Assembly: GCA_010025655.1 (NCBI GenBank)
Contig: RGSV01000013.1
Span: 1-13,653 of the forward strand
Source of the DNA: Acidimicrobiia bacterium
GTDB lineage: Bacteria; Actinomycetota; Acidimicrobiia; Acidimicrobiales; Ilumatobacteraceae
Direction: 5' to 3'
Length of the DNA stretch: 13,653 nucleotides
Shown here: positions 1-13,584 of the stretch, in pieces
How the letters are laid out: each line of letters starts with the position of its first letter
Position numbering within the stretch: the first letter of the stretch is position 1
Program-made: the position numbers and the translations under genes
The notes under the pieces: model-generated
The model's database searches: none
What the model was told of the DNA's origin: nothing
The model's input: only the letters and a program-made list of their open reading frames with translations

Positions 1-374
1 GTCTCGCTGGCGACAACGAGATCGCAACCGAGCGCGAGGTTGCACCCTGCGCCGACCGCCACCCCACGCACCTTGGCGATGGTCGGCTGGGGCATGCGGT
101 GCAGCGAGAGCGCAGCGTCGTTCACCGAACGCATGGCAACCAGTTGGTGCACGGGTCGTTCGCCAGCGGTGCGCGCCGACAAGTCGGCACCCGAGCAGAA
201 CTCGCCCCCTGCCCCGGTGATCACCACACAGCGAACCGTGGTGTCGGCAGAGAGTGCACGAAACGTCTCGGCCAACTGGCCCCACATCTCGCCCGTCACG
301 GCATTTTTGCGTTGCGGACGGTTGATGGTGACCGTCGCTACCCCGCCATCACGCGTGACCTCGATGTCGGCCAT
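1..374 (-). CDS. Enoyl-CoA hydratase/isomerase (crotonase) family protein, N-terminal part; 3' end outside window
   Basis: Reading leftward from the ATG at 374 gives 124 uninterrupted codons to the window edge. The visible part has the crotonase hallmarks: an N-terminal strand leading into INRPQRKNA (about residues 17-25), the first oxyanion-hole/CoA segment TGAGGEFCSGADL (53-65), and the second segment VRGVAVGAGCNLALGCDL (102-119). Family members hydrate, isomerise or otherwise convert acyl-CoA thioesters in the cytoplasm. At the place where classical hydratases carry the first catalytic Glu (GGGCE) this protein has Asn112, so plain 2-enoyl-CoA hydratase activity should not be assumed; an isomerase or another crotonase reaction is possible. 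The position of the second catalytic acid lies outside the window. It diverges from the small gene at 395 and shows no functional link with the phosphonate genes. Family assignment is firm; the substrate is unknown. Confidence 0.9.
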   Translation of the reverse strand, partial: MADIEVTRDGGVATVTINRPQRKNAVTGEMWGQLAETFRALSADTTVRCVVITGAGGEFCSGADLSARTAGERPVHQLVAMRSVNDAALSLHRMPQPTIAKVRGVAVGAGCNLALGCDLVVASE

Positions 375-2469: not shown

Positions 2470-3312
2470 TCAGGCGCGCTGACGTTCGGTTATCGGTGCG
2501 GCTGCAGGCGTACTCGGGGTGGCGAGAAGCTCCGACTCGCGGTCCACTCGGCGGTACACCTCCATCACGTCAGTTTGTGACAGGCCGCGCGCATCTTGAT
2601 CGAGCACCACGCGTCCGTCGCGCAAGCCGACGATGCGATGCGCCCAGCCGAGTGCAAGCTCCACCTGGTGCAAGGTGACGATGACGGTCATCTTGTCTTC
2701 GGTGGCCACCTTGAGCAACAACTCGAGCACCTGCGCGCTCGACTCGGGGTCGAGAGATGCCACTGGTTCGTCGGCCAGCAGCAACTGTGGCTGCTGCATG
2801 ATCGTGCGGGCGATGGCAACGCGTTGCATTTGGCCACCCGACAAAGTGTCGGCACGCTGATAGGCCTGCGGGGCGAGACCCACGCGCTCAAGGTGATCGA
2901 ACGCCTCACGGCGCAGCGTGCGTGGGTACGACCACACGCCATAACGCGGGCCACGCAAGCGGCCGAGCGCACCGCTCAACACGTTCTCGAGGCAGGTCGC
3001 CCGACCCACCAAACCGAATTGCTGAAAGACGAATCCGACGTTGCGTCGCACGTCGCGCAACTGCTTGCTCGAAGCCGATGACACCTCGACGCCGAACACT
3101 TTCACGGTGCCGGCGGTGGGCTTGTGCAGCCCGTTGAGATGGCGCATCAGCGTTGACTTACCTGAGCCTGAAAGGCCGATGAGTGACAGCAACTGACCTT
3201 TCGGCACGGTCATTGACACGTTGTCGAGGGCCAGCGTGCCGTTGGGGAAACGCTTCGATACTCCGGTGAGGCTGATGAGGGGATCAGCCCCACCGGAGAG
3301 AACGGTGGTCAT
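2470..3312 (-). CDS. phnC: Phosphonate ABC transporter ATP-binding protein PhnC
   Basis: 280 aa with all ABC ATPase motifs: Walker A GLSGSGKST (46-54), Q-loop FVFQQFG (94-100), signature LSGGQMQRVAIART (157-170), Walker B LLLADEP (177-183) and the H-loop His at 215 (TLHQ). It hydrolyses ATP at the inner face of the membrane to drive uptake through the PhnE fusion. The start is placed at ATG 3312 (MTTVLSGGAD). The open frame reaches back to an ATG at 3387, but the extra 25 residues (rich in Arg and Asn) overlap the end of phnD and are not PhnC-like. The gap to phnD is 43 nt and no clear Shine-Dalgarno is seen. A 20-residue Ala/Pro/Glu-rich tail (about 261-280) extends past the normal PhnC end. 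Confidence 0.95.
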   Translation of the reverse strand: MTTVLSGGADPLISLTGVSKRFPNGTLALDNVSMTVPKGQLLSLIGLSGSGKSTLMRHLNGLHKPTAGTVKVFGVEVSSASSKQLRDVRRNVGFVFQQFGLVGRATCLENVLSGALGRLRGPRYGVWSYPRTLRREAFDHLERVGLAPQAYQRADTLSGGQMQRVAIARTIMQQPQLLLADEPVASLDPESSAQVLELLLKVATEDKMTVIVTLHQVELALGWAHRIVGLRDGRVVLDQDARGLSQTDVMEVYRRVDRESELLATPSTPAAAPITERQRA

Positions 3313-3355
3313 GCGAATGTTGCGCGAGTGGTTACGGTCGTTGTTGCGTTGAGTG

Positions 3356-4438
3356 TTAGCGGCAACGGCTCGACTTGGTGGCTTCACACACCTGGCGAAT
3401 CGCGTCGTACACCGCGTCGCTCGTGGGCTTGAAGCCCCACGTGGCGTCTTCGATCACGTTGCAGTTCGTCTCGTTTGCGCAGAGACCCATGCTGACGAAC
3501 GCCGTCTTGTTGATCTTCTCAAGGATCGTCTTCTTCAGTAATGCAAAGAGATCGGCGGGCAGGTCCTTACGCACCGCGATCGGCGAGTTCGGAATCTCAC
3601 CGCTCTTCCACACGACGTTGAAGTCGGAGGTCTTGATCAAGCCGCGGTCGACGAGCAACTTGTCGAACATGTCGTCGTAGACGAAGCCTGCATCGCACGT
3701 GCCGGCCTGCACTGCAAGCACCGACTTGTCGTGACCACCGGCGAGCACCGAGCGGTAGTCAGTCGCCTGAATACCGTTTTCGAGCAGACCAGCCGTCGGA
3801 TAGAGGAAGCCCGAGGTTGACGCGGCGTCAACGAAGCACAGGTTCTTACCTTTCACGTCTTTGATCGAGTTGATGCCAGAGCCCTTCTTCGTCACGAGGT
3901 AGGACAGGTAATAGCCCGAGGCCACCGTCGAAGTCGGCACCGAGGCACCGACGGCGTCGATCTTTGCACCGCGCGCCTTGGCCAACACATATGAGAACGG
4001 CCCATAGAACACCACGTCGGCGCGACCGGCAACTTGGGCTTCAATGACGCCCGCGTAGTCGGTGGCAGAAATAAAGGTGGTTGGCAGACCGGTCTCTTTC
4101 TCGATGACTTTGACGAAGTTCTGGTAGCGCAGCGTCATGGTTGCCACGTTCTCGCTCGGCACGGCCGCGATCACGAGCTTGGAGGGCCAGCCCGCGCGGG
4201 AGGTCGAGGCACCCTTGGCGGCTGCAGCTGCAGTCCAGGTGTACTTCTTGGTCTTGGCGTTGTAGGTGCAGGTCAGCGTGCCGCTCTTGCGGTTGAGCTG
4301 TGCCTTGGTGCACGCCTGGCCGGCACTCACGCTGGTGAGGGCCTGCGACATGGCAGGTGCGCTGATCGCGAGCACGAATGCGGCAACGGCAGCAACTCGC
4401 GCGAAGCGACGAAGGGTGGGCGTGGAACTGAGCTTCAT
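3356..4438 (-). CDS. phnD: Phosphonate ABC transporter substrate-binding protein PhnD, with extra N-terminal Cys-pair segment
   Basis: 360 aa exported binding protein. Residues 1-33 form a Sec signal peptide (basic RRFAR, hydrophobic core, cleavage plausible after SQA at 33 or APA at 29). There is no lipobox Cys, so it appears secreted or wall-associated rather than a lipoprotein. The PhnD domain starts near 87 (KLVIAAVPSEN) and contains GRADVVFYGPFSYVLAK (137-153) and the phosphonate-loop STSG (206-209), matching the segment that grips the phosphonate oxygens in E. coli PhnD. Near the amine-binding position E. coli has His-Glu, where this protein has H235-D236; substrate preference cannot be read from that alone. 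Between signal peptide and domain lies a compact insert with C43 and C57 and a TKKYTW strand-like end, followed by an Ala-rich linker. It is preceded by a strong Shine-Dalgarno and sits 50 nt after the upstream secreted-protein gene. Confidence 0.94.
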   Translation of the reverse strand: MKLSSTPTLRRFARVAAVAAFVLAISAPAMSQALTSVSAGQACTKAQLNRKSGTLTCTYNAKTKKYTWTAAAAAKGASTSRAGWPSKLVIAAVPSENVATMTLRYQNFVKVIEKETGLPTTFISATDYAGVIEAQVAGRADVVFYGPFSYVLAKARGAKIDAVGASVPTSTVASGYYLSYLVTKKGSGINSIKDVKGKNLCFVDAASTSGFLYPTAGLLENGIQATDYRSVLAGGHDKSVLAVQAGTCDAGFVYDDMFDKLLVDRGLIKTSDFNVVWKSGEIPNSPIAVRKDLPADLFALLKKTILEKINKTAFVSMGLCANETNCNVIEDATWGFKPTSDAVYDAIRQVCEATKSSRCR

Positions 4439-4488: not shown

Positions 4489-6195
4489 TTACTTGCCGGC
4501 TTTGGTCGGTGCCGGAGCGGTGAGCTCGAACATTGCAACGGTGCCCGACAGTTCGTAGGAGACGATGACCAGCGGCTTACCAGTCGGGCTCTCGCTCGCC
4601 TCGAGGAACAAGACGCCCTCGGGCGACACATCACCCGCAGTGTTCAGGTAAATGTTGCCACCCGGCAGGCTCGTGTTGAGGTACTGGCGGAACTGCGGGA
4701 GCACCGGATTGGTCACGTCGTAGAGCACGATGCCGCTGTCGCGCTCGAGCGCGAGCACCATCCACTGGCGGCCGTAGGCCGTGCCGACGGCGAGACCTTC
4801 AGGCTCAGGACCTTTCGCCGACGAGCGTGACTCGAACGAACCAACGAGGCCCGTTTCGGTGTTCCAGTCGGAGTTGAACAGCAACGGACGTCGTGCCGCC
4901 ACGAGTCGCTCGAGTTCGTCACCCGAGTCATAGACGATGTCGGCGTTAAATACACCGTCAATCGTGTTGCTCTTCCACACCGTGAACGAACGACCGCCAA
5001 AGGTGTAGGCGGGCGTCACCTTGGTGGTTGACCCCACGATGGTGCCAGTGACGACCGCCGGCGGGAACACGGTGACGCGGGCACGACCAGCGACGCTCGA
5101 CGGTGTGAGGTTGGTGTCGAGGCCGACGTCGGCGTAGCGCGGATCTTCGCGTTCGGCTGTGGTCGTGCTGGTGCCGCCGAGCAGACATGGCCATTCGCGG
5201 GCGTCACCTTCGTTGGCGGTGATCATGTAGGTGTTGCCACCTGCGGTGACTGATGCGATGGCGTCGGGCAGATACATGCCCTGCACGTTGCGTGGCACGA
5301 TATTGATCGCGTTGTCGCGGTCGCTCATGTCGAGACCCGTGTTGTACACGTTGTGGTTCTTGTAGCCGAGGCCGAGCACGTTCGTGATGGTCGCCGTGGC
5401 GAGGTCAACTGTTGCAATCGAGTTGTTCTCTTGCAGCGTCACGTAGGCGGTCGTGCTGTCGGCGGAAATCGCCGCGTATTCAGGCTCGAGGTCTTGTTCG
5501 ACCGAAGCGCCCGGGCCGAAGATGCGGCCACCGGCGTAGATGATCGCGTTCTTGCGTTGGGCGAAGCTCGTGAAGTCAACCGTCTTCACGGTCGGCGGGG
5601 TGGCTTCGAGATCAACGATGGAGATGCTGCCCTTCGGGTCGGAGGTCTCCGGAAGAGCACCGTTCACGAGGCAGTAGTCCTTGGGTTCGCCTTCGTTCGC
5701 GCTGATGGCGTATTTGCCATCGCTGCTGATGGTCACTGAGTCGGGCAACGCGCCGACGGTCAAGCCGGCGGGCAGACCCTTCACCATCTTGCCGTTGACG
5801 TCCATCACGAACAAGATGCCTGGTGCGGTCTTCGATGCGCCAGCCGAAGCGACGACGACAATGCCGTTTTTCGCGGCAACACTCTGAATGCCGCTCGAAC
5901 CGAGTGCCGTGAAATCAACCGACTTGACGAGCTTCACTTTCTTGGGGTTGCTGATGTCGACGATGTCGATGGTGTTCTTGGCACCGTTGGTGACGAAGAG
6001 TCGCTTCGACTCTTTGTCAACCGCGGAGATCTCCGCTCCGGCGAGACCAGCGCCCGACGTCCAGCGTCCGACGAATCGAAGCTCAGAACCGTTGACGGGC
6101 ACCGTGTTGGCACCCGCCGAAGAAGCTGCAAATGAGCCAGCGGCTAGCGCAAGTGCGGTGGATAGGACGGCAATAACGCGTGTTGAAGTTTTCAT
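4489..6195 (-). CDS. Secreted choice-of-anchor I family beta-propeller-like protein
   Basis: 568 aa from ATG 6195 (MKTSTRVIAVLSTALALAAG). An in-frame ATG at 6291 would add 32 residues, several of them basic, ahead of an otherwise ideal Sec signal peptide, so 6195 is preferred. The signal peptide is about 1-29, with cleavage likely after AGA. The mature part shows propeller-like repeats typical of the choice-of-anchor I group: FVTNGAKNTIDIVDISNP (67-84), SANEGEPKDY (165-174), TLQENNSIATVDL (253-265), LDMSDRDNAINI (288-299), ITANEGDAREW (325-335), PEPEGLAVG (463-471) and SPEGVLFLEA (524-533). C175 and C337 are the only cysteines in the mature chain and could pair. No C-terminal anchor (sortase signal, PEP-CTERM or transmembrane helix) is present, so it is probably released. 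Biochemical function in this family is poorly known; some relatives are annotated as alkaline phosphatase or phytase-like. Its place directly before phnD suggests a role in phosphorus scavenging, which is inference. Confidence 0.82.
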   Translation of the reverse strand: MKTSTRVIAVLSTALALAAGSFAASSAGANTVPVNGSELRFVGRWTSGAGLAGAEISAVDKESKRLFVTNGAKNTIDIVDISNPKKVKLVKSVDFTALGSSGIQSVAAKNGIVVVASAGASKTAPGILFVMDVNGKMVKGLPAGLTVGALPDSVTISSDGKYAISANEGEPKDYCLVNGALPETSDPKGSISIVDLEATPPTVKTVDFTSFAQRKNAIIYAGGRIFGPGASVEQDLEPEYAAISADSTTAYVTLQENNSIATVDLATATITNVLGLGYKNHNVYNTGLDMSDRDNAINIVPRNVQGMYLPDAIASVTAGGNTYMITANEGDAREWPCLLGGTSTTTAEREDPRYADVGLDTNLTPSSVAGRARVTVFPPAVVTGTIVGSTTKVTPAYTFGGRSFTVWKSNTIDGVFNADIVYDSGDELERLVAARRPLLFNSDWNTETGLVGSFESRSSAKGPEPEGLAVGTAYGRQWMVLALERDSGIVLYDVTNPVLPQFRQYLNTSLPGGNIYLNTAGDVSPEGVLFLEASESPTGKPLVIVSYELSGTVAMFELTAPAPTKAGK

Positions 6196-6203
6196 CGCGC
6201 GAG

Positions 6204-6209
6204 AATCTA
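6204..6209 (-). promoter_or_regulatory. Candidate -10 element for the secreted-protein/phnDCE operon
   Basis: TAGATT on the minus strand ends 8 nt before the ATG at 6195, which would give a leaderless or nearly leaderless transcript. No Shine-Dalgarno lies between it and the start codon. A -35 at the usual 16-18 bp spacing is not recognisable. The same -10-to-start geometry occurs before the genes at 6424 and 7788. Confidence 0.4.
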
Positions 6210-6258
6210 CGACTCGCAGGTTTCGCCGCGTTTGACGACTGGCATACGAATGGCGCAT

Positions 6259-6291
6259 TTTTGGTGAACATCGCATGACCGTTTTGTGCAC
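6259..6291 (-). promoter_or_regulatory. PHO-box-like 11-bp direct repeats
   Basis: Read on the minus strand, three consecutive 11-bp units occur: GTGCACAAAAC (6291-6281), GGTCATGCGAT (6280-6270) and GTTCACCAAAA (6269-6259). The second and third resemble the actinobacterial PhoP direct-repeat unit, whose core is close to GTTCACC with 11-bp spacing; the first is a poor match. The block lies in the divergent control region, about 50 bp upstream of the proposed -10 at 6204-6209. That is farther upstream than the usual overlap with the -35. Phosphate-starvation control would suit the gene content, but this is a motif judgement by eye. Confidence 0.35.
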
Positions 6292-6335
6292 CTCGTGAGG
6301 TCACTCAGGTGCCACTGCCTGATCGCGACGTAACG

Positions 6336-6355
6336 AGCGAACCATCGAGTTCGCT
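6336..6355. promoter_or_regulatory. Perfect 7-6-7 inverted repeat, possible operator
   Basis: AGCGAAC (6336-6342) is followed by a 6-nt spacer and its exact reverse complement GTTCGCT (6349-6355). It is intergenic, 68 nt upstream of the dioxygenase start at 6424. Its size suits a dimeric transcription factor, and it is not followed by a T-run, so it is unlikely to be a terminator. The factor is unknown and no regulator gene is present in the window. Confidence 0.35.
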
Positions 6356-6409
6356 GGCAATTCACATGCTGTTGCCCTCGACGTCGCCGTGGGCATCGAC
6401 AGCGAAGGG

Positions 6410-6415
6410 TATTCT
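6410..6415 (+). promoter_or_regulatory. Candidate -10 element for the catabolic operon
   Basis: TATTCT (4 of 6 bases of TATAAT) ends 8 nt before the GTG at 6424, consistent with a leaderless transcript. An AAGG only 3 nt from the GTG is too close to be a convincing ribosome binding site. No standard -35 is evident. Confidence 0.4.
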
Positions 6416-6423
6416 CAAGGCTC

Positions 6424-7191
6424 GTGTCAGGGCAGGTTCTCCAATCGCATGAGCGTGAGTCGTTCGCGCGCGACGGCTGGGTCGTGACCAACCTGCTCGA
6501 TGCCGACCAGACCGCCCGACTGCGGCAATGGGTCGGCGATGTACAGGCGTGGAGTGACGCCGGCGGCTGGATGAATCACTACGAACTCACCCAACACGGC
6601 CCACGCCGCTGTCGCACGGAATATTTCACGCCCTATCACGTCGGACTGCAGCAGCTGTTGTGCACCGGCACGATGATTGCGGCGGCAAGTGAACTGCTGG
6701 GCGAGCAGGCGGTGCTGTACAAAGAGAAGATCAACTACAAACTTGCGGGTGGCGCAGGATGGGAACCCCACCAAGACGCGCCGGCGTATCCGTTCATCGA
6801 GTCGCATATCTCGTGCATGATTGCGGTTGACGACGCCACCACTGAAAACGGCTGTCTCGACGTCGTCTCGGGAATGCACCACGAGTTGATCGAGACCGAC
6901 GAGCGTGGCTGTATTCCCGAGGCCGTGGCGGCAACGTTGCAGTGGCAGCCGGCGCCGCTGCGGGCCGGACAGACCATGTGGTTTCACTCGCGCACACCAC
7001 ACCGCTCAGGCGACAATCGGTCGACGCGCGACCGGCGTGCGATTTACCCCACCTACAACGCAGCGCGCGAAGGCGACCTGCGCGATGAGTATTACGCAAC
7101 GAAGCGCGCCGAGCTCGACCGCATCGCCAGTGGCGAGCGCGTGCAAATATCGCTGATCGACGATTTTCGCGGAATACCGGTGCCGCGATGA
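6424..7191 (+). CDS. phnY: Fe(II)/2-oxoglutarate dioxygenase, PhnY/TmpA-like phosphonate hydroxylase
   Basis: 255 aa, phytanoyl-CoA dioxygenase (PhyH) superfamily. The metal-binding triad is visible as H116-x-D118 (EPHQDAPAY) and the distal His at 193 (TPHRSGDNRS), followed by Arg residues at 202-205, of which one should bind the 2-oxoglutarate carboxylate. The segment LYKEKINYKLAGGAGW (98-113) just before HxD resembles the characterised phosphonate hydroxylases PhnY and TmpA. Those enzymes hydroxylate the carbon next to phosphorus in 2-aminoethylphosphonate or its trimethyl derivative. The call rests largely on the next gene, a PhnZ-like partner joined by an ATGA overlap. The start is GTG 6424. 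Exact substrate is not determinable; 2-aminoethylphosphonate, its N-methylated forms or another alkylphosphonate are candidates. First gene of the rightward operon. Confidence 0.8.
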   Translation: MSGQVLQSHERESFARDGWVVTNLLDADQTARLRQWVGDVQAWSDAGGWMNHYELTQHGPRRCRTEYFTPYHVGLQQLLCTGTMIAAASELLGEQAVLYKEKINYKLAGGAGWEPHQDAPAYPFIESHISCMIAVDDATTENGCLDVVSGMHHELIETDERGCIPEAVAATLQWQPAPLRAGQTMWFHSRTPHRSGDNRSTRDRRAIYPTYNAAREGDLRDEYYATKRAELDRIASGERVQISLIDDFRGIPVPR

Positions 7192-7757
7192 GTCTGGAAA
7201 GTCGTGATGAATTTCTCGCCGGTGTGCGCAGCCTGTATGAGCGCTGGGGCACCAACAAATACGACGAACAGGTGAGCCAAATTGAGCACGCCGTGCAATG
7301 CGCCCAGCACGCACGCGACGACGGCGCCGACGCAGCGCTCGTGGTAGCCACATTGTTGCACGACATCGGTCACCTGTTGGCTCTCGAGCGCAGCGACGGA
7401 AGCGTCGATGTGTCTCTGAACGACACGCACGAGGCGACCGGGGCCGCGTTCCTCGCACGACACTTCAGCCCGGCGGTCACCGCGCCTATCGCTCTGCATG
7501 TCGAAGCGAAGCGATATCTCTGCACGGTGGAAGACGACTATTTCGCCTCGCTGTCGGTGGGTTCGGTGCGCAGCCTTGCCGTGCAAGGTGGTCGCATGAG
7601 CCCCGACGAGGTCGAGCGTTTTCGGCGGCATCCGGCCGCTGAGCGGGCGGTAGCGCTGCGACGCTGGGATGAACGCGGCAAGAGCCTGGCCCCGAGTGGT
7701 CTTACGTTCGATGACTTCTCCAGCGAACTGCTTGCCGTTCGCGCTGACGTCACCTGA
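7188..7757 (+). CDS. phnZ: PhnZ-like HD-domain di-iron oxygenase (oxidative C-P bond cleavage)
   Basis: 189 aa, nearly the length of PhnZ. PhnZ-type enzymes use a mixed-valence di-iron site and O2 to cleave 1-hydroxyphosphonates, releasing phosphate and a carboxylate (glycine from hydroxylated 2-aminoethylphosphonate). Iron ligands fall at almost the same numbers as I recall for PhnZ: H34, H58-D59 (LLHDIGH), H81 (PhnZ H80), H104 and D161. Residues recalled as contacting substrate are also present: H62, K108, S126, Q133 and R158. E27 and a nearby Tyr25 resemble the gating Tyr/Glu pair, although the Tyr is offset by one. The ATG overlaps the dioxygenase stop as ATGA. The conserved pocket supports an enzyme rather than a regulatory HD phosphohydrolase. 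TmpB (trimethylated substrate) is the main alternative identity. Confidence 0.87.
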   Translation: MSLESRDEFLAGVRSLYERWGTNKYDEQVSQIEHAVQCAQHARDDGADAALVVATLLHDIGHLLALERSDGSVDVSLNDTHEATGAAFLARHFSPAVTAPIALHVEAKRYLCTVEDDYFASLSVGSVRSLAVQGGRMSPDEVERFRRHPAAERAVALRRWDERGKSLAPSGLTFDDFSSELLAVRADVT

Positions 7758-7774
7758 TGTTTACGCACCGCTCG

Positions 7775-7780
7775 TACTCT
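7775..7780 (+). promoter_or_regulatory. Candidate internal -10 element upstream of phnG
   Basis: TACTCT ends 7 nt before the GTG at 7788, in the 30-nt gap after phnZ. This is the only gap in the rightward gene string longer than 5 nt, so it may hold an internal promoter giving leaderless phnG-M transcripts. No clear -35 or Shine-Dalgarno is seen. Confidence 0.35.
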
Positions 7781-7787
7781 CGGCAAA

Positions 7788-8246
7788 GTGCCGAGCACTG
7801 CGATTGGGTCTACCGATACCACTAGTGCGCTGATGCGATCGCGGCCCGAGCGCCTCGTCGAGCTCGGCGAACGTTGTCTCACGAGTGAGACTCTGAGATC
7901 TTCGCTCGTTGTCACTCAGCCGCCCGCGTGCGGCACAGTGATGGTGCAGGTGCGCGAGCCGGTGCGTCGCGAGCGTTTCTATCTTGGCGAGATCTTGGTG
8001 ACTCGGTGTGAGGTACGCCTTGACGCTGAGCGGGGTTGGGCAATGATCGACGGCGACGAGCCACGTGCCGCCTTGGCCGCCGCGCTCTGCGATGCAGTTT
8101 CTCGCACGACCGCCGAAGAGTATGAACCTCTACGGCTGGCCATCGATGAACTGTGCCGAGAGACTCGCGAACATCTGGCGGCACAAGAGCAACGTCGCTG
8201 GGATCAGATTGCCGACACACGAGTGAAGTTCGAAGAGTTCGAATGA
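7788..8246 (+). CDS. phnG: C-P lyase core subunit PhnG
   Basis: 152 aa from GTG 7788, about the length of E. coli PhnG (150). The central block VMVQVREPVRRERFYLGEIL (51-70) and the following GWAMIDGDEPRAALAAALCD (84-103) are typical of PhnG, a structural subunit of the PhnGHIJ core. Together with PhnI, PhnH and PhnL it takes part in forming alpha-D-ribose-1-phosphonate-5-triphosphate from phosphonate and a nucleoside triphosphate. An internal ATG at 7833 (MRSRPERL) is an alternative start and would remove a 15-residue Ser/Thr-rich leader. The GTG is chosen because of the -10-like element 7 nt before it. The stop is followed 1 nt later by the phnH start. Confidence 0.9.
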   Translation: MPSTAIGSTDTTSALMRSRPERLVELGERCLTSETLRSSLVVTQPPACGTVMVQVREPVRRERFYLGEILVTRCEVRLDAERGWAMIDGDEPRAALAAALCDAVSRTTAEEYEPLRLAIDELCRETREHLAAQEQRRWDQIADTRVKFEEFE

Positions 8247-8247
8247 C

Positions 8248-8808
8248 ATGACGCTCTCAGCCCTGTCGTCGCGCGACTCAACCTTGGTGTTTCGCTCGTT
8301 GCTCACCTCGCTCTCGAGCCCCGGCGAAAAGGTGCCGATGCCGACGCACCTGTGCGAAACGATGCCACCACGGGCGTTGCCGTTGTTGGCACTCACCGAT
8401 ATCGAGACGACGTTCTGTGCGCCAGATGATCCTGACCTCGAAGCCGAAGTGGCCGAGCTCACCGGCTCGCGCGTGGTCTCGGTAGCCGACGCCAACTTCG
8501 TTCTCTGTTCGACACCTCCGCCGCACGAACTCGTGCTTCACGTCGGTCGCGGCACGCCGTTGCATCCGGAACTCGGTTGTCGTTTGATTGTGTGCACCGA
8601 GTCGCACGAAGGTGACGTGGCCATGCGCCTGACCGGCCCCGGCACACGACCCAATGCGAACCTCTCAGTTTCCGCATCAGCCGACGAGTTCATTGCGGCA
8701 CGGAACATCGCAGTGGCGCATCCACCGTCGGGCATCGACTGCTGGCTGGTCTCCGCGAATGGTGTCGTCGTCGGTCTGCCCCGCACGACGCTTGTGGAGA
8801 AGCGGTAA
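8248..8808 (+). CDS. phnH: C-P lyase core subunit PhnH
   Basis: 186 aa, close to E. coli PhnH (194). It shows the N-terminal FRSLLTSLSSPGEKVPM segment (15-31), which corresponds to the usual FRxxMxAMSxPG pattern. The C-terminal hallmarks are MRLTGPGTRPNA (125-136) and GIDCWLVSANGVVVGLPRTT (162-181). PhnH adopts a PLP-transferase-like fold without cofactor and packs on the outside of the PhnGHIJ complex. ATG 8248 is 1 nt after the phnG stop, and phnI starts 5 nt after its stop, so expression is likely coupled. Confidence 0.9.
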   Translation: MTLSALSSRDSTLVFRSLLTSLSSPGEKVPMPTHLCETMPPRALPLLALTDIETTFCAPDDPDLEAEVAELTGSRVVSVADANFVLCSTPPPHELVLHVGRGTPLHPELGCRLIVCTESHEGDVAMRLTGPGTRPNANLSVSASADEFIAARNIAVAHPPSGIDCWLVSANGVVVGLPRTTLVEKR

Positions 8809-8813
8809 CCACC

Positions 8814-9929
8814 ATGGGCTACGTCTCGGCACGAGGTGGACTCGACGCAATTCGCGCCGCTGAGCGACTCGTGCGGAGATTGCGCCTGACCTCTGAGTCG
8901 TCGTGGCTCGAAGAAGACCAGATTCTCGAAAAGCTCCGCCTGCTCGTCGACCGCGTGATGGGTGAAGCCGGACTGTGGGCACCGCGACTCGCAGCGAAGG
9001 CACTGCGGCAGAGCGAGGGTGACGCCACCGAGGCGGTGCACTTGCTGCGCGCCTATCGCTCGACGCTCCCCCGCTTTGCCTACTCAGAACCGGCAGATGC
9101 CGACGATGTCAGTGTCGAGCGACGAATCGTGCCGGCATTCCAGCGGGTTCCCGGCAGCCAGCTGCTCGGCCGGTCGGTTGACTACACCGCGCGATTCCTC
9201 GAACGACAGAGCGACGACTTGGCCCGCGAAGAGGCCGAGAAACTTCGCTCAGAGGCGTCGGGTACGCCAGACGATGAACGCAGCGAGGCGCACGCCGACG
9301 GTGACACCCCTCAACGTTCGCCCCAGCGACTGCTCGAGATGTTGCGCGAAATGGATCTCGTTGTCGACCGACGACGAGCCGACGATCCCGAGCCGTTCGA
9401 CATCACCCGCACCCCGGCGCGTCCGCCTGCTGCGCGATCGGCGCTGCTCAGCTCAATGACGCGCGCCGACACCGGCGCACTCGTCAATCAGTGGTACCGC
9501 AACATTCTCGGACCTGACGGCTATCTCCACGAAGTCACCCTGGGCGAGGTTCGTCACGGTGCGATCGACGTCGAGGTTCGCCACCCAGTTACAGGGTTGC
9601 CGGTCTGCGTTTCATCGGTGAGAGTCACCGAGGTTGAGGCGATCGAAGATCTCGAAGGCGTCGACGAAGATCGCACCAAGTTTGACGTGGGATACGGCTT
9701 GTGTTTCGGCCACAACGAACGCAAGGCCATCGCGATGGCCAATCTCGATATTGCCTGCCACCGCGATGCAGGGCGGACGCAACTCGAACAGTCGTTGCTG
9801 CTCACCACCGATGCGCTCGATTCGGCGGGCTTTCTCGAACATCTCAAGCTGCCCCACTACGTGACTTTTCGTTCGATGATCGAGCGCAAGTTTGCGATGC
9901 GCAAGGCGAGGAATCGCGATGCTTCTTGA
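8814..9929 (+). CDS. phnI: C-P lyase core subunit PhnI (nucleosidase)
   Basis: 371 aa, slightly longer than E. coli PhnI (354). It begins with the canonical MGYVSARGG. Conserved blocks include YGLCFGHNERKAIAMAN (294-310) and HLKLPHYVTFRS (343-354). The two His residues at 343 and 348, five apart, correspond to the E. coli PhnI pair (H328/H333) reported to bind a metal at the PhnI-PhnJ interface. The extra length sits mainly in an acidic, low-complexity linker at about 137-172 (EEAEKLRSEASG and following), probably disordered. PhnI is the catalytic nucleosidase that displaces the purine from the nucleoside triphosphate during ribose-phosphonate formation. Its stop overlaps the phnJ start by 11 nt. 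Confidence 0.94.
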   Translation: MGYVSARGGLDAIRAAERLVRRLRLTSESSWLEEDQILEKLRLLVDRVMGEAGLWAPRLAAKALRQSEGDATEAVHLLRAYRSTLPRFAYSEPADADDVSVERRIVPAFQRVPGSQLLGRSVDYTARFLERQSDDLAREEAEKLRSEASGTPDDERSEAHADGDTPQRSPQRLLEMLREMDLVVDRRRADDPEPFDITRTPARPPAARSALLSSMTRADTGALVNQWYRNILGPDGYLHEVTLGEVRHGAIDVEVRHPVTGLPVCVSSVRVTEVEAIEDLEGVDEDRTKFDVGYGLCFGHNERKAIAMANLDIACHRDAGRTQLEQSLLLTTDALDSAGFLEHLKLPHYVTFRSMIERKFAMRKARNRDAS

Positions 9930-10764
9930 CGATCTCATCAACCCGACGCAGTCAGACGAGCTGCTCGACGAGTTCGCCAAGCGCGAAATACGCCGCGCGA
10001 TGTTGGCGGCAGTTGCGATTCCGGGTTATCAGGTGCCGTTCGGCTCGCGCGAAATGCCGGTTGCGCGCGGGTGGGGCTCGGGTGGCCTGCAGATCACGCT
10101 CGCCGTCGTGCACGACGACGACGTAGTGAAGGTCATCGACCAAGGCGACGACGACGGTGTCAACGCGGTCAACCTTCGTCGTTTGGTCACGACATCGACG
10201 GGTGCCGACCAGACGAGTGTCGCGGCCGAAGCCAGCGTGATTCAGAGTCGACATCGCATTCCCGAAGATGGCCTCGACGAAGAAAGCATTCTCGTGCTGC
10301 AGGTGCCGGTGCCCGAACCATTGCGTGGCGTCGAACGCGACATGCGCGAACTTGCTCGCATGCACGCAGAAGCCGACTACTCGCGCATGTGGGTGAGCCT
10401 GTACGAAGACAAGGTTCGCAACGGCGTGATCACCCAGACCACCGGGTATCCCTGTTTGGTCAACGAGCGATACGTCGTCGCCACCACACCGATACCTCGC
10501 TGGGACATTCCACGGTTGCACGAATCGCCGTTTCTCACGCTCTTTGGCGCCGGGCGCGAGAAGCGCATCTACGCGATTCCGCCGCGCACGAAGGTAGAGC
10601 CGCTCACGTTTGACGATGTTCCATTCGAAGTTGAGGATGCCGACGGTGCCTCGTGCGCGATGTGCAAGAGCAGCGACGCGTTTCTCGTCTCGCTTCCGAA
10701 TTCCGACGTCTGGATGTGCAGCGACACCGACTGGTGTCGTCGCACGCGCGAGGCCAACGCGTGA
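9919..10764 (+). CDS. phnJ: C-P lyase radical SAM enzyme PhnJ
   Basis: 281 aa from ATG 9919 (MLLDDLINPT), a standard PhnJ beginning. An upstream in-frame ATG at 9892 only adds residues lying inside phnI. PhnJ cleaves the C-P bond of ribose-1-phosphonate-5-phosphate, giving the hydrocarbon and ribose 1,2-cyclic phosphate 5-phosphate. Key features are Gly36 in AIPGYQVPF (equivalent of the glycyl-radical Gly32 of E. coli), KVIDQGDDD (71-79), SRHRIPE (110-116), VPEPLR (131-136) and FGAGREKRIYA (209-219). The C-terminal Cys group is C246, C249, C267 and C273. The Fe-S motif is CX2CX17C, where E. coli has CX2CX21C: the loop before CSDTDWC is 4 residues shorter. C273 matches the fourth conserved Cys (E. 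coli C272). All catalytic residues are present, so it should be functional. Confidence 0.96.
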   Translation: MLLDDLINPTQSDELLDEFAKREIRRAMLAAVAIPGYQVPFGSREMPVARGWGSGGLQITLAVVHDDDVVKVIDQGDDDGVNAVNLRRLVTTSTGADQTSVAAEASVIQSRHRIPEDGLDEESILVLQVPVPEPLRGVERDMRELARMHAEADYSRMWVSLYEDKVRNGVITQTTGYPCLVNERYVVATTPIPRWDIPRLHESPFLTLFGAGREKRIYAIPPRTKVEPLTFDDVPFEVEDADGASCAMCKSSDAFLVSLPNSDVWMCSDTDWCRRTREANA

Positions 10765-11645
10765 CAACCGAAGTCGAATACGGCCGCTACCCCGTTGCGC
10801 GACTCGCAGTGCCGGAATGGATGCTGAAGGTCGAGCGGCTGGGCCGGGTGTACGGACCGTTTGACGACGCCGTCATCGCATCCACGGGTCCCGAGGTCGG
10901 CAGTTCGAAGAGCGCGTTGAACGGCGCGGTCGTAGCAGCGTGGGATGTTTCGTTCGAAGTCGCGGCTGGCGAGGCACTCGGGCTCGTCGGTGAATCTGGT
11001 TCTGGCAAGACCACGGTGTTGCGATGCCTGGCCGGCGATGTCGCACCATCGCGCGGTGAGGCTCGGTTGCGCACCGCCGCAGGTGACGTGTCGATGTTCG
11101 AGCTCGACCCTTCAGCGCGTCGCCGTCTGCGCATCGACACGCTCGCCGTGGTGTATCAAGATCCGGCTGAAGGGTTGAAGTTGAACATCAGCGCTGGCGG
11201 AAACATCGCCGAACCGCTGACAGCGGCCGGCTGGCGCAACTTCGGCAACATTCGCAACCGCGCTTCAGAACTCTTGACGCGCACCGAAGTGCCGATCAAC
11301 CGCATGGACGACCTCGTGCGGGGGTTCTCGGGTGGCATGAAGCAACGCGTGCAGATTGCCAAGGCCCTCGCCAATTCTCCCAGCGTGGTTCTCTTCGACG
11401 AGCCGACGACCGGTCTTGACGCCAGCGTTGCCGCCGGAGTTCTCGACCTCATTCGCTCGCTGCTCGAAGAACACCGAATCGCCGCCATCGTCGTTTCGCA
11501 CGATTTCGCGGTGATCGAGATGCTCACGTCGCGCTGTCTCGTGATGCAACACGGTCGGGTGGTGGAGAATGCGCTCACCGACCAGTTGCTCGAAGATCCG
11601 CACCACCCCTACACCCAACGACTCGTGGCGGCGGCTCGGTCGTGA
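10761..11645 (+). CDS. phnK: C-P lyase ABC-type ATPase PhnK
   Basis: 294 aa from GTG 10761, which overlaps the phnJ stop as GTGA. ABC motifs: Walker A GESGSGKTT (77-85), Q-loop YQDP (132-135), signature FSGGMKQRVQIAKAL (189-203), Walker B VVLFDEP (209-215) and H-loop SHD with His247. A C-terminal DPHHPYTQ (279-286) is of the oligopeptide-transporter ATPase kind, as in PhnK. It is not a transporter: PhnK docks on the PhnGHIJ core. It is about 40 residues longer than E. coli PhnK (252), with an N-terminal extension (1-20) and an insert around 33-58 (AVIASTGPEVGSSK) before the first core strand. ATG 10821 (MLKVERLGRVYG) is an alternative start that removes the extension. Confidence 0.92.
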   Translation: MTTEVEYGRYPVARLAVPEWMLKVERLGRVYGPFDDAVIASTGPEVGSSKSALNGAVVAAWDVSFEVAAGEALGLVGESGSGKTTVLRCLAGDVAPSRGEARLRTAAGDVSMFELDPSARRRLRIDTLAVVYQDPAEGLKLNISAGGNIAEPLTAAGWRNFGNIRNRASELLTRTEVPINRMDDLVRGFSGGMKQRVQIAKALANSPSVVLFDEPTTGLDASVAAGVLDLIRSLLEEHRIAAIVVSHDFAVIEMLTSRCLVMQHGRVVENALTDQLLEDPHHPYTQRLVAAARS

Positions 11646-12397
11646 GACGCGAACCTGTGCTCGATGTGCGGCGACTGCACAAGTCGTTCGTTTTGCACGC
11701 CGTGAGCGACCGAACCGTGGTGGCGTTCGCTGACATCAACTTCACGCTGACCGCCGGCGAACACGTGGCACTCGCGGGCATGAGTGGCGCAGGCAAGTCT
11801 TCGTTGCTCAAGTCGATTTACCGCACGTATCGCCCCGATAGTGGCGAGGTGTGGCTGCAGATTCATGCCGGAGAGTACGTCGACATGTGTTCGCTGAGCG
11901 ATGCCGAGATCGCCGCAATTCGCGGGCATGAAATCGGCTACGTCTCGCAGTTCTTGCGATCAGAACCTCGGCGGGGTGCTCTTGAGATCGTCACGCGATC
12001 GGCGCGCCAGCGCGGCATGACCGACCACGACGCCCGTGAAGCTGCGGCAGCCGCACTGCAGCGAGTCGGCATCGAAGAACGCCTGTGGGATGTGTACGCC
12101 TCGGTGCTCTCAGGCGGCGAGAAGCAACGCGTCAACCTTGCAGCGGGCACCGTTCACCCGCCTCGGCTGTTGTTGCTCGATGAGCCCCTGTCGGCTCTCG
12201 ACCCAGAGAATCGCGAGCGGGCCCTTGCGTTGATTGCCTCGCTCACGCATCGGGGTGTTGCAGTGGTGTCGATCTTCCACGACCTTGAAGCCATTCAACG
12301 GCTCGCCAGCCGAGTGCTCGTGCTTGAGAAGGGTCGGCTCGTTGCCGAACGGTCTCCTGACGAACTCGACTCACGACTCGCATCGGCGGCACGATGA
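11642..12397 (+). CDS. phnL: C-P lyase ABC-type ATPase PhnL
   Basis: 251 aa from GTG 11642, overlapping the phnK stop as GTGA. ABC motifs: Walker A GMSGAGKSS (46-54), Q-loop VSQF with Gln103, signature LSGGEKQRVNLAAG (156-169), Walker B LLLLDEP (176-182) and H-loop FHD with His213. The GKSSLLKSIYRTYRPDSGEV segment after Walker A is characteristic of PhnL. It assists PhnGHI in ribose-phosphonate formation and binds the core complex with PhnK. The phnM start overlaps its stop as ATGA. Confidence 0.93.
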   Translation: MRREPVLDVRRLHKSFVLHAVSDRTVVAFADINFTLTAGEHVALAGMSGAGKSSLLKSIYRTYRPDSGEVWLQIHAGEYVDMCSLSDAEIAAIRGHEIGYVSQFLRSEPRRGALEIVTRSARQRGMTDHDAREAAAAALQRVGIEERLWDVYASVLSGGEKQRVNLAAGTVHPPRLLLLDEPLSALDPENRERALALIASLTHRGVAVVSIFHDLEAIQRLASRVLVLEKGRLVAERSPDELDSRLASAAR

Positions 12398-13584
12398 GCG
12401 GAGCCTCGTTCGCTGTTCGAAACGTCACGGCGGTGCTGCCCGATGCACTTCTCGAGAACGCCGTCGTGGTGGTGGAAGACGGCGTCATCGTCGATGTGTC
12501 GCAACGAGCGGCTCCGCCGAACGCCGTCGACGGTAACGGTGCGTATTGTCTGCCGGGCTTGGTCGACACGCACAACGATGGTCTCGAACGCGAGGTCATG
12601 CCGCGTCCGAGCACCAGGGTGCCAGTTGAGTTCGCTCTCCGCGCATTCGAGTCGCGCATTCGCGCCGCCGGCATCACCACGCTCTTCCACGGCATCAGTT
12701 GGGAGAACGACTCGAAATGGAACCGCACCGTCGAACTCGCCAAAGAGTTCAGTCTGCACATCGCCGACTATCGCGAGTCGGATTCTTCGCTCATCGACCA
12801 CCGACTGCTGCACCGCCTCGATGCTCGCGACGGCGACGGTTCGGACGCACTGCGCACCTACCTTGAAGACGTCGGAGCCCCGCACGACTTTGGCGGCGAT
12901 ACTCCCCTCGTATCATTCGAAGACCACACCCCGGGTCAAGGTCAATACACCGACCGCAGTGGCCTGGTTCGCTACCTCATGGGCACTCGCGGGTTGTCTG
13001 CCGAGCAAGCAGAGGTCGAGGTGGAGAATACCTTCCTCGAACGCGAGGCGAAGAAGCACTACCGCTCGGCAGCCCTCTCGTGGATCGTGAACTCGGCTGA
13101 TCGCGGTCAGATACGTCTCATCGGTCACGATCTCGCAACGACCGCCGAGGTTGAAGAAGCAGCAGAGTGGGGCGCGCACATCGCCGAGTTTCCGACCACC
13201 ATCGAGGCGGCTCGGCTGTCGCGCGAACGCGAACTGCGCATCGTGTGTGGCGCGCCAAACGTGATGCGCGGCGGCAGTCACAGCGGCAACGTCGGAGCAC
13301 TCGAGTTGGTTCGCAACGCACTCTGTGACGGGTTGTGCTCTGACTATCTTCCTTACAGCATGATCGAATCAGTGCCCATTCTCGTCAAAGAGGGTGCGTG
13401 CACGCTTCCGCGAGCGGTTCGTCTGGTCACACGGGGCCCAGCCGTATCGGTGGGTCTCGAAGACCGAGGTTTGATTGCCAAGGGTATGCGCGGCGACCTC
13501 GTGCTTGCCCGCATCGGCGAACGAACCGCACAAGTGTTGGCAGTGCTCACCTCGCAAGCCCGAGCCTCGCTCGTCACCGCATGA
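12394..13584 (+). CDS. phnM: Ribose 1-phosphonate 5-triphosphate diphosphatase PhnM
   Basis: 396 aa amidohydrolase, similar in size to E. coli PhnM (378). It removes pyrophosphate from alpha-D-ribose-1-phosphonate-5-triphosphate to give the PhnJ substrate. Metal-site landmarks are H60-x-D62 in LVDTHNDGLERE, the H136/H140 helix (LIDHRLLHRLD), FEDHTPGQGQY (175-185), LIGHDLAT (242-249) with H245-D246, NVMRGGSHSGN (289-299) and D317 in CSDYLPYSM. The order of these motifs matches PhnM throughout. Start ATG 12394 overlaps the phnL stop (ATGA). A further gene starts on its own stop codon at 13581. Confidence 0.95.
   Translation: MSGASFAVRNVTAVLPDALLENAVVVVEDGVIVDVSQRAAPPNAVDGNGAYCLPGLVDTHNDGLEREVMPRPSTRVPVEFALRAFESRIRAAGITTLFHGISWENDSKWNRTVELAKEFSLHIADYRESDSSLIDHRLLHRLDARDGDGSDALRTYLEDVGAPHDFGGDTPLVSFEDHTPGQGQYTDRSGLVRYLMGTRGLSAEQAEVEVENTFLEREAKKHYRSAALSWIVNSADRGQIRLIGHDLATTAEVEEAAEWGAHIAEFPTTIEAARLSRERELRIVCGAPNVMRGGSHSGNVGALELVRNALCDGLCSDYLPYSMIESVPILVKEGACTLPRAVRLVTRGPAVSVGLEDRGLIAKGMRGDLVLARIGERTAQVLAVLTSQARASLVTA

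What the first reader, a model, noticed from the sequence alone, without database searches (positions are those of the whole stretch)
6424..13584. Oxidative PhnY/PhnZ pair fused at operon level to a complete C-P lyase phnGHIJKLM
Two mechanistically unrelated C-P bond-cleaving systems lie in one tightly packed transcription unit: an Fe(II)/2OG hydroxylase plus an HD di-iron oxygenase (ligands H34, H58, D59, H81, H104, D161 all seen), then the full radical C-P lyase core. Each route alone should release phosphate. The pair may widen substrate range, with the oxidative route for 2-aminoethylphosphonate-type compounds and the lyase for alkylphosphonates. It might instead act on a phosphonate that the lyase handles poorly, or tune use by oxygen supply. 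I do not recall this gene order as a characterised system.
Basis: partly seen in the sequence, partly recalled or inferred. Interest (0 to 1): 0.75.

Follow-up and report, generated by a model that had tools for sequence, protein, structure and literature searches.

The report
Two phosphonate-splitting systems in one operon
A bacterium related to lake actinobacteria carries, in one tight row of genes, two chemically unrelated ways to free phosphate from phosphonates, and the oxygen-using one has a loop like that of a formate-making methylphosphonate enzyme, so one cell may settle whether that compound becomes methane or formate.

Summary
Window 6424-13584 encodes a PhyH-type hydroxylase (PhnY*), a PhnZ-type HD di-iron oxygenase and C-P lyase phnGHIJKLM on one strand, with gaps of at most 30 nt. 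It is not unique: 5 of 13 genomes of the window's genus carry phnY*Z, and all 5 run straight on into phnG; in the other 8 neither was found. Of 221 genomes of the family, 28 have PhnJ and 23 of those also have a PhnZ-like protein. The PhnY*Z pair adjoins C-P lyase genes in 13 genomes, in four arrangements that fall in separate places on the PhnY* tree. The link is recurrent.

The window PhnZ has a gating loop one residue shorter (YxE) than PhnZ and TmpB (YxxE, whose Glu meets the substrate amine), and the curated hydroxymethylphosphonate-dioxygenase model prefers the short loop. Whole-sequence scores do not settle it. Best reading: a methylphosphonate-type oxidative route (formate) beside C-P lyase (methane). 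Substrate is inferred. PhnZ alone inside C-P lyase operons is already visible in annotated plasmids; ten searches of the held papers showed me no report of PhnY*Z joined to phnG-M. New variant of a known kind.

The parts
6424..7191 (+). phnY*-like Fe(II)/2-oxoglutarate hydroxylase (PhyH family), 255 aa
   Evidence: PF05721 90.1 bits; NF052437 254.8 bits; H116, D118, H193 and R204 invariant in 33 of 33 aligned relatives (their role as metal and 2OG ligands is family knowledge, recalled); model pLDDT 92.9, nearest folds are PhyH-type hydroxylases
7188..7757 (+). phnZ-like HD-domain mixed-valent di-iron oxygenase, 189 aa, short YxE loop (Y25-D26-E27)
   Evidence: TIGR03276 202.7, NF052439 153.0, NF049941 (TmpB) 140.8 bits; six ligands conserved; the ten Foldseek matches with E<=0.001 are all TmpB or PhnZ
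7788..8246 (+). phnG, C-P lyase core
   Evidence: PF06754 87.9 bits
8248..8808 (+). phnH, C-P lyase core
   Evidence: PF05845 97.7 bits
8814..9929 (+). phnI, C-P lyase core
   Evidence: PF05861 327.4 bits
9919..10764 (+). phnJ, radical C-P lyase catalytic subunit (ORF open from 9892)
   Evidence: PF06007 385.4 bits; four Cys, CX2CX17CX5C; start
10761..11645 (+). phnK, ABC ATPase (ORF open from 10653)
   Evidence: TIGR02323 219.7 bits, best model; start
11642..12397 (+). phnL, ABC ATPase-like
   Evidence: TIGR02324 232.2 bits, best model
12394..13584 (+). phnM, diphosphatase
   Evidence: TIGR02318 309.7 and NF011984 305.0 bits
771..2468 (-). phnE, two permease units in one protein
   Evidence: TIGR01097 483.7 bits, two stretches
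2470..3387 (-). phnC, transporter ATPase (5' start uncertain)
   Evidence: TIGR02315 281.1 bits, over cut-off
3356..4438 (-). phnD-like phosphonate-binding protein
   Evidence: PF12974 180.7 bits; TIGR01098 209.6, over cut-off
4489..6195 (-). choice-of-anchor I protein, probably secreted, divergent from phnY* (ORF open from 6291)
   Evidence: PF22494 282.3 bits; kept beside phnY* in all 5 genus members; start at 6195 chosen by a signal-peptide-like N terminus, by eye

Best explanation
A phosphonate-scavenging locus in which an oxidative two-enzyme route and the radical C-P lyase route are made as one unit, next to a phnDCE importer. Inferred steps: PhnY* (Fe(II), 2-oxoglutarate, O2) hydroxylates the carbon next to phosphorus, most likely of methylphosphonate, to hydroxymethylphosphonate; PhnZ (mixed-valent di-iron, O2) splits that into formate and phosphate. 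In parallel PhnGHI(LM) and PhnJK load phosphonates onto ribose and cleave the C-P bond by radical chemistry, giving the hydrocarbon (methane from methylphosphonate) and ribosyl cyclic phosphate. Shown here: the genes, their families, their intact metal ligands, the conserved order in the genus, and repeated linkage in the family. Inferred: the substrate, co-transcription, and any division of labour by oxygen, affinity or by-product.
For: All nine genes on one strand with overlaps or gaps of at most 30 nt. Order conserved: 5 of 13 genus genomes have phnY*Z and all 5 have phnG next. In the family, 23 of 28 PhnJ genomes also have a PhnZ-like protein against 74 of 193 without PhnJ (Fisher p=2e-5, relatedness not corrected). 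Four arrangements of the pair with C-P lyase; at least 5 changes of the linked state on the PhnY* tree of 99 rows. Pair unity: fusions in both orders. Methylphosphonate type: NF052437 is the only hydroxylase model hit strongly; short YxE loop; lengthening that loop lowers the NF052439 score by 5.7, 5.9 and 6.1 bits in three proteins and raises the TmpB score by 8.3, 8.3 and 7.0; shortening it in TmpB itself costs the TmpB model 10.1 bits and gains NF052439 1.9.
Against: The window PhnZ scores only 12 bits better on the hydroxymethylphosphonate model than on the TmpB model, and a YxxE protein from Variovorax shows the same difference (155.0 against 140.2), so only the loop speaks for the type. 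Both curated cut-offs (500, 300) are far from reached. In 8 of 28 PhnJ genomes the PhnZ-like gene is on another contig, in 2 about 11 kb away, and in 5 none was found. No conserved Pho-box was found upstream. The genomes are mostly incomplete drafts (own genome 78% complete).
Confidence: 0.55

Rival explanations
1. The pair serves 2-aminoethylphosphonate or a relative, and C-P lyase serves alkylphosphonates: two arms with different substrates.
For: The founding PhnY*/PhnZ pair acts on aminoethylphosphonate (PMC8154272, PMC10574752, passages). A Glu is kept at the loop (E27; E in 210 and D in 15 of 235).
Against: PhnZ-AEP has YxxE (PMC8177086, passages); here the loop is YxE in 199 of the 217 sequences whose loop could be read. 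The PhnZ of known AEP type (PDB 4mlm) is the poorer match: 78 against 98 bits for TmpB.
Confidence: 0.2
2. The pair, or PhnZ above all, lets the cell use alpha-hydroxyphosphonates such as hydroxymethylphosphonate, which C-P lyase may handle poorly.
For: PhnZ-like genes lie in C-P lyase operons without a PhyH partner in Nostoc and Variovorax plasmids and in G018, G220 and G248. Prochlorococcus MIT9301 with phnYZ grows on methyl- and hydroxymethylphosphonate (PMC6581173, passages).
Against: In the window phnY* is translationally coupled to phnZ and conserved with it, so the full two-step route is kept.
Confidence: 0.15
3. Mere clustering: two independent phosphonate systems gathered beside a shared transporter, with no joint role or regulation.
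For: The choice-of-anchor I/phnDCE block occurs with phnY*Z and no phnG in L040, L042, L043, L044 and with phnG-M and no phnY*Z between in 6 loci (L202, L206, L207, L208, L209, L211).
Against: Repeated linkage in four gene orders, in three of them on one strand, and a 480-aa fused PhnY*-PhnZ overlapping phnM in G538.
Confidence: 0.15
4. The HD protein replaces PhnP (cyclic phosphodiesterase) in the C-P lyase pathway.
For: No PhnP over cut-off in 22 of 22 genomes searched; HD proteins often are phosphoesterases.
Against: All six oxygenase ligands and the gating Tyr are kept, it is coupled to a hydroxylase, and the pair is common in genomes without PhnJ. An inositol-monophosphatase-family gene after phnM is a likelier stand-in.
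Confidence: 0.03

Closest known systems
Gimesia maris PhnY*/PhnZ1, methylphosphonate to formate (Gama et al. 2019; known to me through PMC10574752 and PMC6581173 passages and NCBIfam NF052437/NF052439)
   Same: PhyH hydroxylase plus HD oxygenase; best hydroxylase model; short-loop preference of the HD model
   Different: Far below both curated cut-offs; G. maris lacks C-P lyase (recalled from the abstract, not re-read); here the pair precedes phnG-M
HF130 PhnY*/PhnZ, aminoethylphosphonate to glycine
   Same: Family, ligands, two-step logic
   Different: YxxE loop there, YxE here (PMC8177086)
TmpA/TmpB, trimethylaminoethylphosphonate
   Same: TmpB is the closest solved structure by sequence and by fold
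   Different: YxxE loop; no TmpA chain among 14 PDB profile matches of the hydroxylase
phn C-P lyase operons carrying TIGR03276 HD oxygenase (Nostoc sp. ATCC 53789 plasmid, Variovorax sp. SRS16 plasmid)
   Same: HD oxygenase gene inside or at the end of a C-P lyase operon
   Different: No PhyH hydroxylase annotated within 10 kb there; loops are YxxE
Fungal PhoF, a fused PhnY-PhnZ (PMC10574752, passage)
   Same: Fusion of both enzymes; bacterial fusions seen here in G538 and P0048, P0052, P0103
   Different: The window has separate genes

Membership tests
C-P lyase (phnGHIJKLM) | All core subunits G, H, I, J plus K, L, M | tested here: met
   PhnK and PhnL below their NCBIfam cut-offs but best model
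C-P lyase (phnGHIJKLM) | PhnJ iron-sulphur cysteines | tested here: met
   CX2CX17CX5C; spacing 17-24 among 63 PhnJ rows with the motif, 1 row cut off
C-P lyase (phnGHIJKLM) | PhnP for the cyclic phosphate product | tested here: not met
   0 of 22 genomes over the TIGR03307 cut-off, own genome without any match; PhnP is known to be absent from some C-P lyase operons (PMC10574752, passage)
PhnZ / TIGR03276 HD oxygenase | Six di-iron ligands H...HD...H...H...D | tested here: met
PhnZ / TIGR03276 HD oxygenase | Curated score 214.6 | tested here: not met
   202.7 bits; in the family search 7 of 221 genomes reach it
PhnZ (AEP) and TmpB | YxxE gating loop | tested here: not met
   YxE, Y25-D26-E27
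Hydroxymethylphosphonate dioxygenase (NF052439) | Curated score 300 | tested here: not met
   153.0 bits
Hydroxymethylphosphonate dioxygenase (NF052439) | Short loop | tested here: met
   indirect, by scoring altered sequences
Methylphosphonate hydroxylase PhnY* (NF052437) | Curated score 500 | tested here: not met
   254.8 bits, only strong hydroxylase model
Methylphosphonate hydroxylase PhnY* (NF052437) | Turnover of methylphosphonate | not testable with these tools
   needs assay
One operon | Common transcript phnY* to phnM | not testable with these tools
   gaps, strand and absence of terminator-like sites agree

The most novel reading that the evidence does not exclude
One operon holds two routes for the same molecule, methylphosphonate: an oxygen-consuming route to formate and a radical route to methane. 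Cells of this lineage would then set, by oxygen, iron or affinity, how much methylphosphonate carbon leaves as methane in oxygenated lakes, and estimates of oxic methane from phnJ abundance would overcount them.
Probability: 0.4. Interest if true: 0.7.

Novelty: new variant of a known kind. Interest (0 to 1): 0.5.

Why it matters
phnJ is used as a marker for methane made from methylphosphonate in oxygenated water, and phnJ of Ilumatobacteraceae has been reported from Flathead Lake (PMC10734540, passages). If members of that family carry an oxidative, methane-free route in the same transcript, the marker does not predict methane for them. The repeated joining of the two systems also gives a natural experiment on why a cell would keep two C-P bond-cleaving chemistries.

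Tried and rejected
A Pho-box search (GTTCACC, recalled motif) upstream of phnY* and phnG gave one exact match in the window, but matches were not conserved among the 16 loci compared: inconclusive. A scan of viral contigs with PhnZ found no relative. The choice-of-anchor I protein has no informative solved relative (one match, E=0.0019, hydrazine synthase beta subunit). I could not place the enzymes in a tree with GmPhnY*, HF130 PhnY* or TmpA, because no sequence of these hydroxylases came from any call; the loop probe replaced it. The PhnP-replacement idea for the HD protein was judged unlikely (see rivals). The 80 loci are the best of 256 and are not independent of the genome search set: the six with C-P lyase genes (L037, L038, L039, L041, L083, L088) have the contig lengths of G012, G007, G006, G008, G488 and G495 and were counted once. 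L046 was left out of the count of loci without phnG because only about 300 nt follow phnZ. Of 215 plasmid records with PhnJ only 60 were listed, so I make no count of plasmids with both.
Full report
Setting. The window is a whole contig (G000:C25) of an incomplete draft of 1.52 Mb, 78% complete. The closest named record is L037, an actinomycetota draft labelled Lanier (PhnY* 92% identical), and L039, labelled Ilumatobacteraceae, has the contig length of genus member G006. I therefore take the family to be Ilumatobacteraceae, from lake samples; this is inference from record titles.

Anatomy. On the minus strand lie phnE (two permease units), phnC, phnD and a choice-of-anchor I protein; divergent from it on the plus strand run phnY*, phnZ, phnG, H, I, J, K, L, M. 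phnY*-phnZ, phnJ-phnK, phnK-phnL and phnL-phnM overlap by 4 nt, phnI-phnJ by 11; the largest gap is 30 nt, between phnZ and phnG. No terminator-like site was found in 6100-8300. In the four genus relatives the same gap, measured from the start of the tblastn match, is 30, 87, 72 and 72 nt at most.

The two oxygenases are phosphonate enzymes. PhnZ matches TmpB and PhnZ structures by sequence (98 and 78 bits) and by fold (ten matches with E<=0.001, all TmpB or PhnZ). PhnY* is a PhyH hydroxylase whose best specific model is methylphosphonate hydroxylase (254.8 bits, cut-off 500). Proteins that fuse both domains exist in both orders: PhyH-HD in G538 and HD-PhyH in P0048, P0052 and P0103 (the HD match of P0048 is under the Pfam cut-off).

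Conservation in the genus. Of 13 genomes, 5 (G000, G006, G007, G008, G012) have a strong PhnZ match (202 to 205 bits) and in all 5 the order is choice-of-anchor I / phnY* phnZ phnG phnH phnI. PhnJ was found in 4 of 13; the contig of G006 ends inside phnI. In the other 8 only weak HD matches (7) or none (1) and no PhnJ were found; drafts are 64 to 95% complete.

Trees. On a quick tree of 99 PhnY* rows the 13 linked rows need at least 5 changes. A is one clade (support 85, not starred) beside rows with choice-of-anchor I/phnY*Z and no phnG; B (98*) and D (95*) lie elsewhere; the C rows share a 97* clade of four with G023, which has no PhnJ. PhnJ of the family lies in one clade of 28 rows with two rows from outside it (100/100). 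Since the choice-of-anchor I/phnDCE block is found beside phnY*Z alone (L040, L042, L043, L044) and beside phnG-M alone (6 loci), the A operon may have arisen by joining the two at this shared block; that is inference.

Outside the family. In a sample of 396 Actinomycetota genomes 15 have PhnJ. Of the 14 other than the window's, 3 have a strong PhnZ match (G179, G220, G248); in G220 and G248 it sits beside C-P lyase genes with no PhnY* match, in G248 after a TIGR03364 FAD oxidoreductase. On plasmids, 28 records hold a PhnZ-like gene; I opened three: Nostoc and Variovorax have it in a C-P lyase operon, Rhodococcus has a PhyH-HD pair without C-P lyase within 10 kb. So PhnZ with C-P lyase is not new; the full pair with C-P lyase is what I did not find described.

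Which substrate. PhnZ and TmpB carry a YxxE loop whose Tyr caps the iron and whose Glu meets the substrate amine (PMC8177086, passages). The window has YxE; so have 199 of 235 sequences, 18 have YxxE and 18 could not be read. To learn which loop the curated models hold, I scored one-residue variants. Lengthening YxE to YxxE changed NF052439 (hydroxymethylphosphonate dioxygenase) by -5.7, -5.9 and -6.1 bits, TmpB by +8.3, +8.3 and +7.0, TIGR03276 by +5.1, +5.0 and +5.0 (window, L200, L197). Shortening YxxE changed NF052439 by +4.8 and +0.9, TmpB by -0.9 and -1.9, TIGR03276 by +0.1 and -1.8 (L196, L198). Shortening TmpB itself gave -10.1 (TmpB), -4.7 (TIGR03276), +1.9 (NF052439). Insertions at three other places in the window protein gave NF052439 -2.4, -3.6, -1.6; TmpB +0.2, -3.5, -3.5; TIGR03276 -4.7, -4.7, -1.6. 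The hydroxymethylphosphonate model thus holds the short loop. Against this, the whole-protein score does not single out that model: 153.0 against 140.8 for the window, and 155.0 against 140.2 for Variovorax with YxxE; L197 and L200 are much closer to it (206.5 and 223.7). I read the pair as methylphosphonate-type with moderate confidence. In arrangement D and in G018 the HD protein lacks the Tyr of the loop altogether, so not all linked HD proteins need share a substrate.

Literature. What I saw: passages of PMC9381506, PMC10574752, PMC6581173, PMC3840354, PMC10291797, PMC8316502, PMC12226003, PMC10734540, PMC8177086, PMC11356716, PMC8154272, PMC11203657 (plus its section 2.7), PMC5649143, PMC8774927, PMC12263773; listings only for the rest. 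PMC8154272 counted 7 phnY*Z clusters in 19,425 complete genomes and sorted clusters without C-P lyase genes as a category. That I found no report of phnY*Z joined to phnG-M rests on searches; the founding papers by McSorley, Gama and Rajakovich were not readable here.

Noticed in passing
after phnM in L083, L201, L202, L206, L208, L142, L204: An inositol-monophosphatase-family ORF follows phnM in 7 of 7 ORFs scanned (L142 just under the Pfam cut-off), while no PhnP passes its cut-off in 22 genomes. It may stand in for a late C-P lyase step. The window ends before this position.
   Followed up: partly
window 4489-6195 (-): A choice-of-anchor I protein, probably secreted, is kept between phnD and phnY* in the genus and beside phnG in other genera; role unknown.
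   Followed up: partly
L200 4756-6198 (-); P0048, P0052, P0103: Bacterial fusions of PhnY* and PhnZ in both domain orders; in G538 the fused gene overlaps phnM.
   Followed up: partly
L203, L204, L139: HD proteins of arrangement D and of G018 lack the Tyr of the gating loop but keep the metal ligands.
   Followed up: partly
window 10620-10760: The PhnJ cysteine spacing is shortened to X17 in the genus and varies from 17 to 24 across the rows examined.
   Followed up: partly
L186: G531 has a phnM-like gene directly upstream of phnZ although no PhnJ was found in that genome.
   Followed up: no
L205 about 4850-5400: phnZ of G495 is split over two frames, a mutation or an assembly error.
   Followed up: no
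window 3-374 (-): Start of an enoyl-CoA hydratase gene at the contig edge, conserved next to phnE in some relatives.
   Followed up: no
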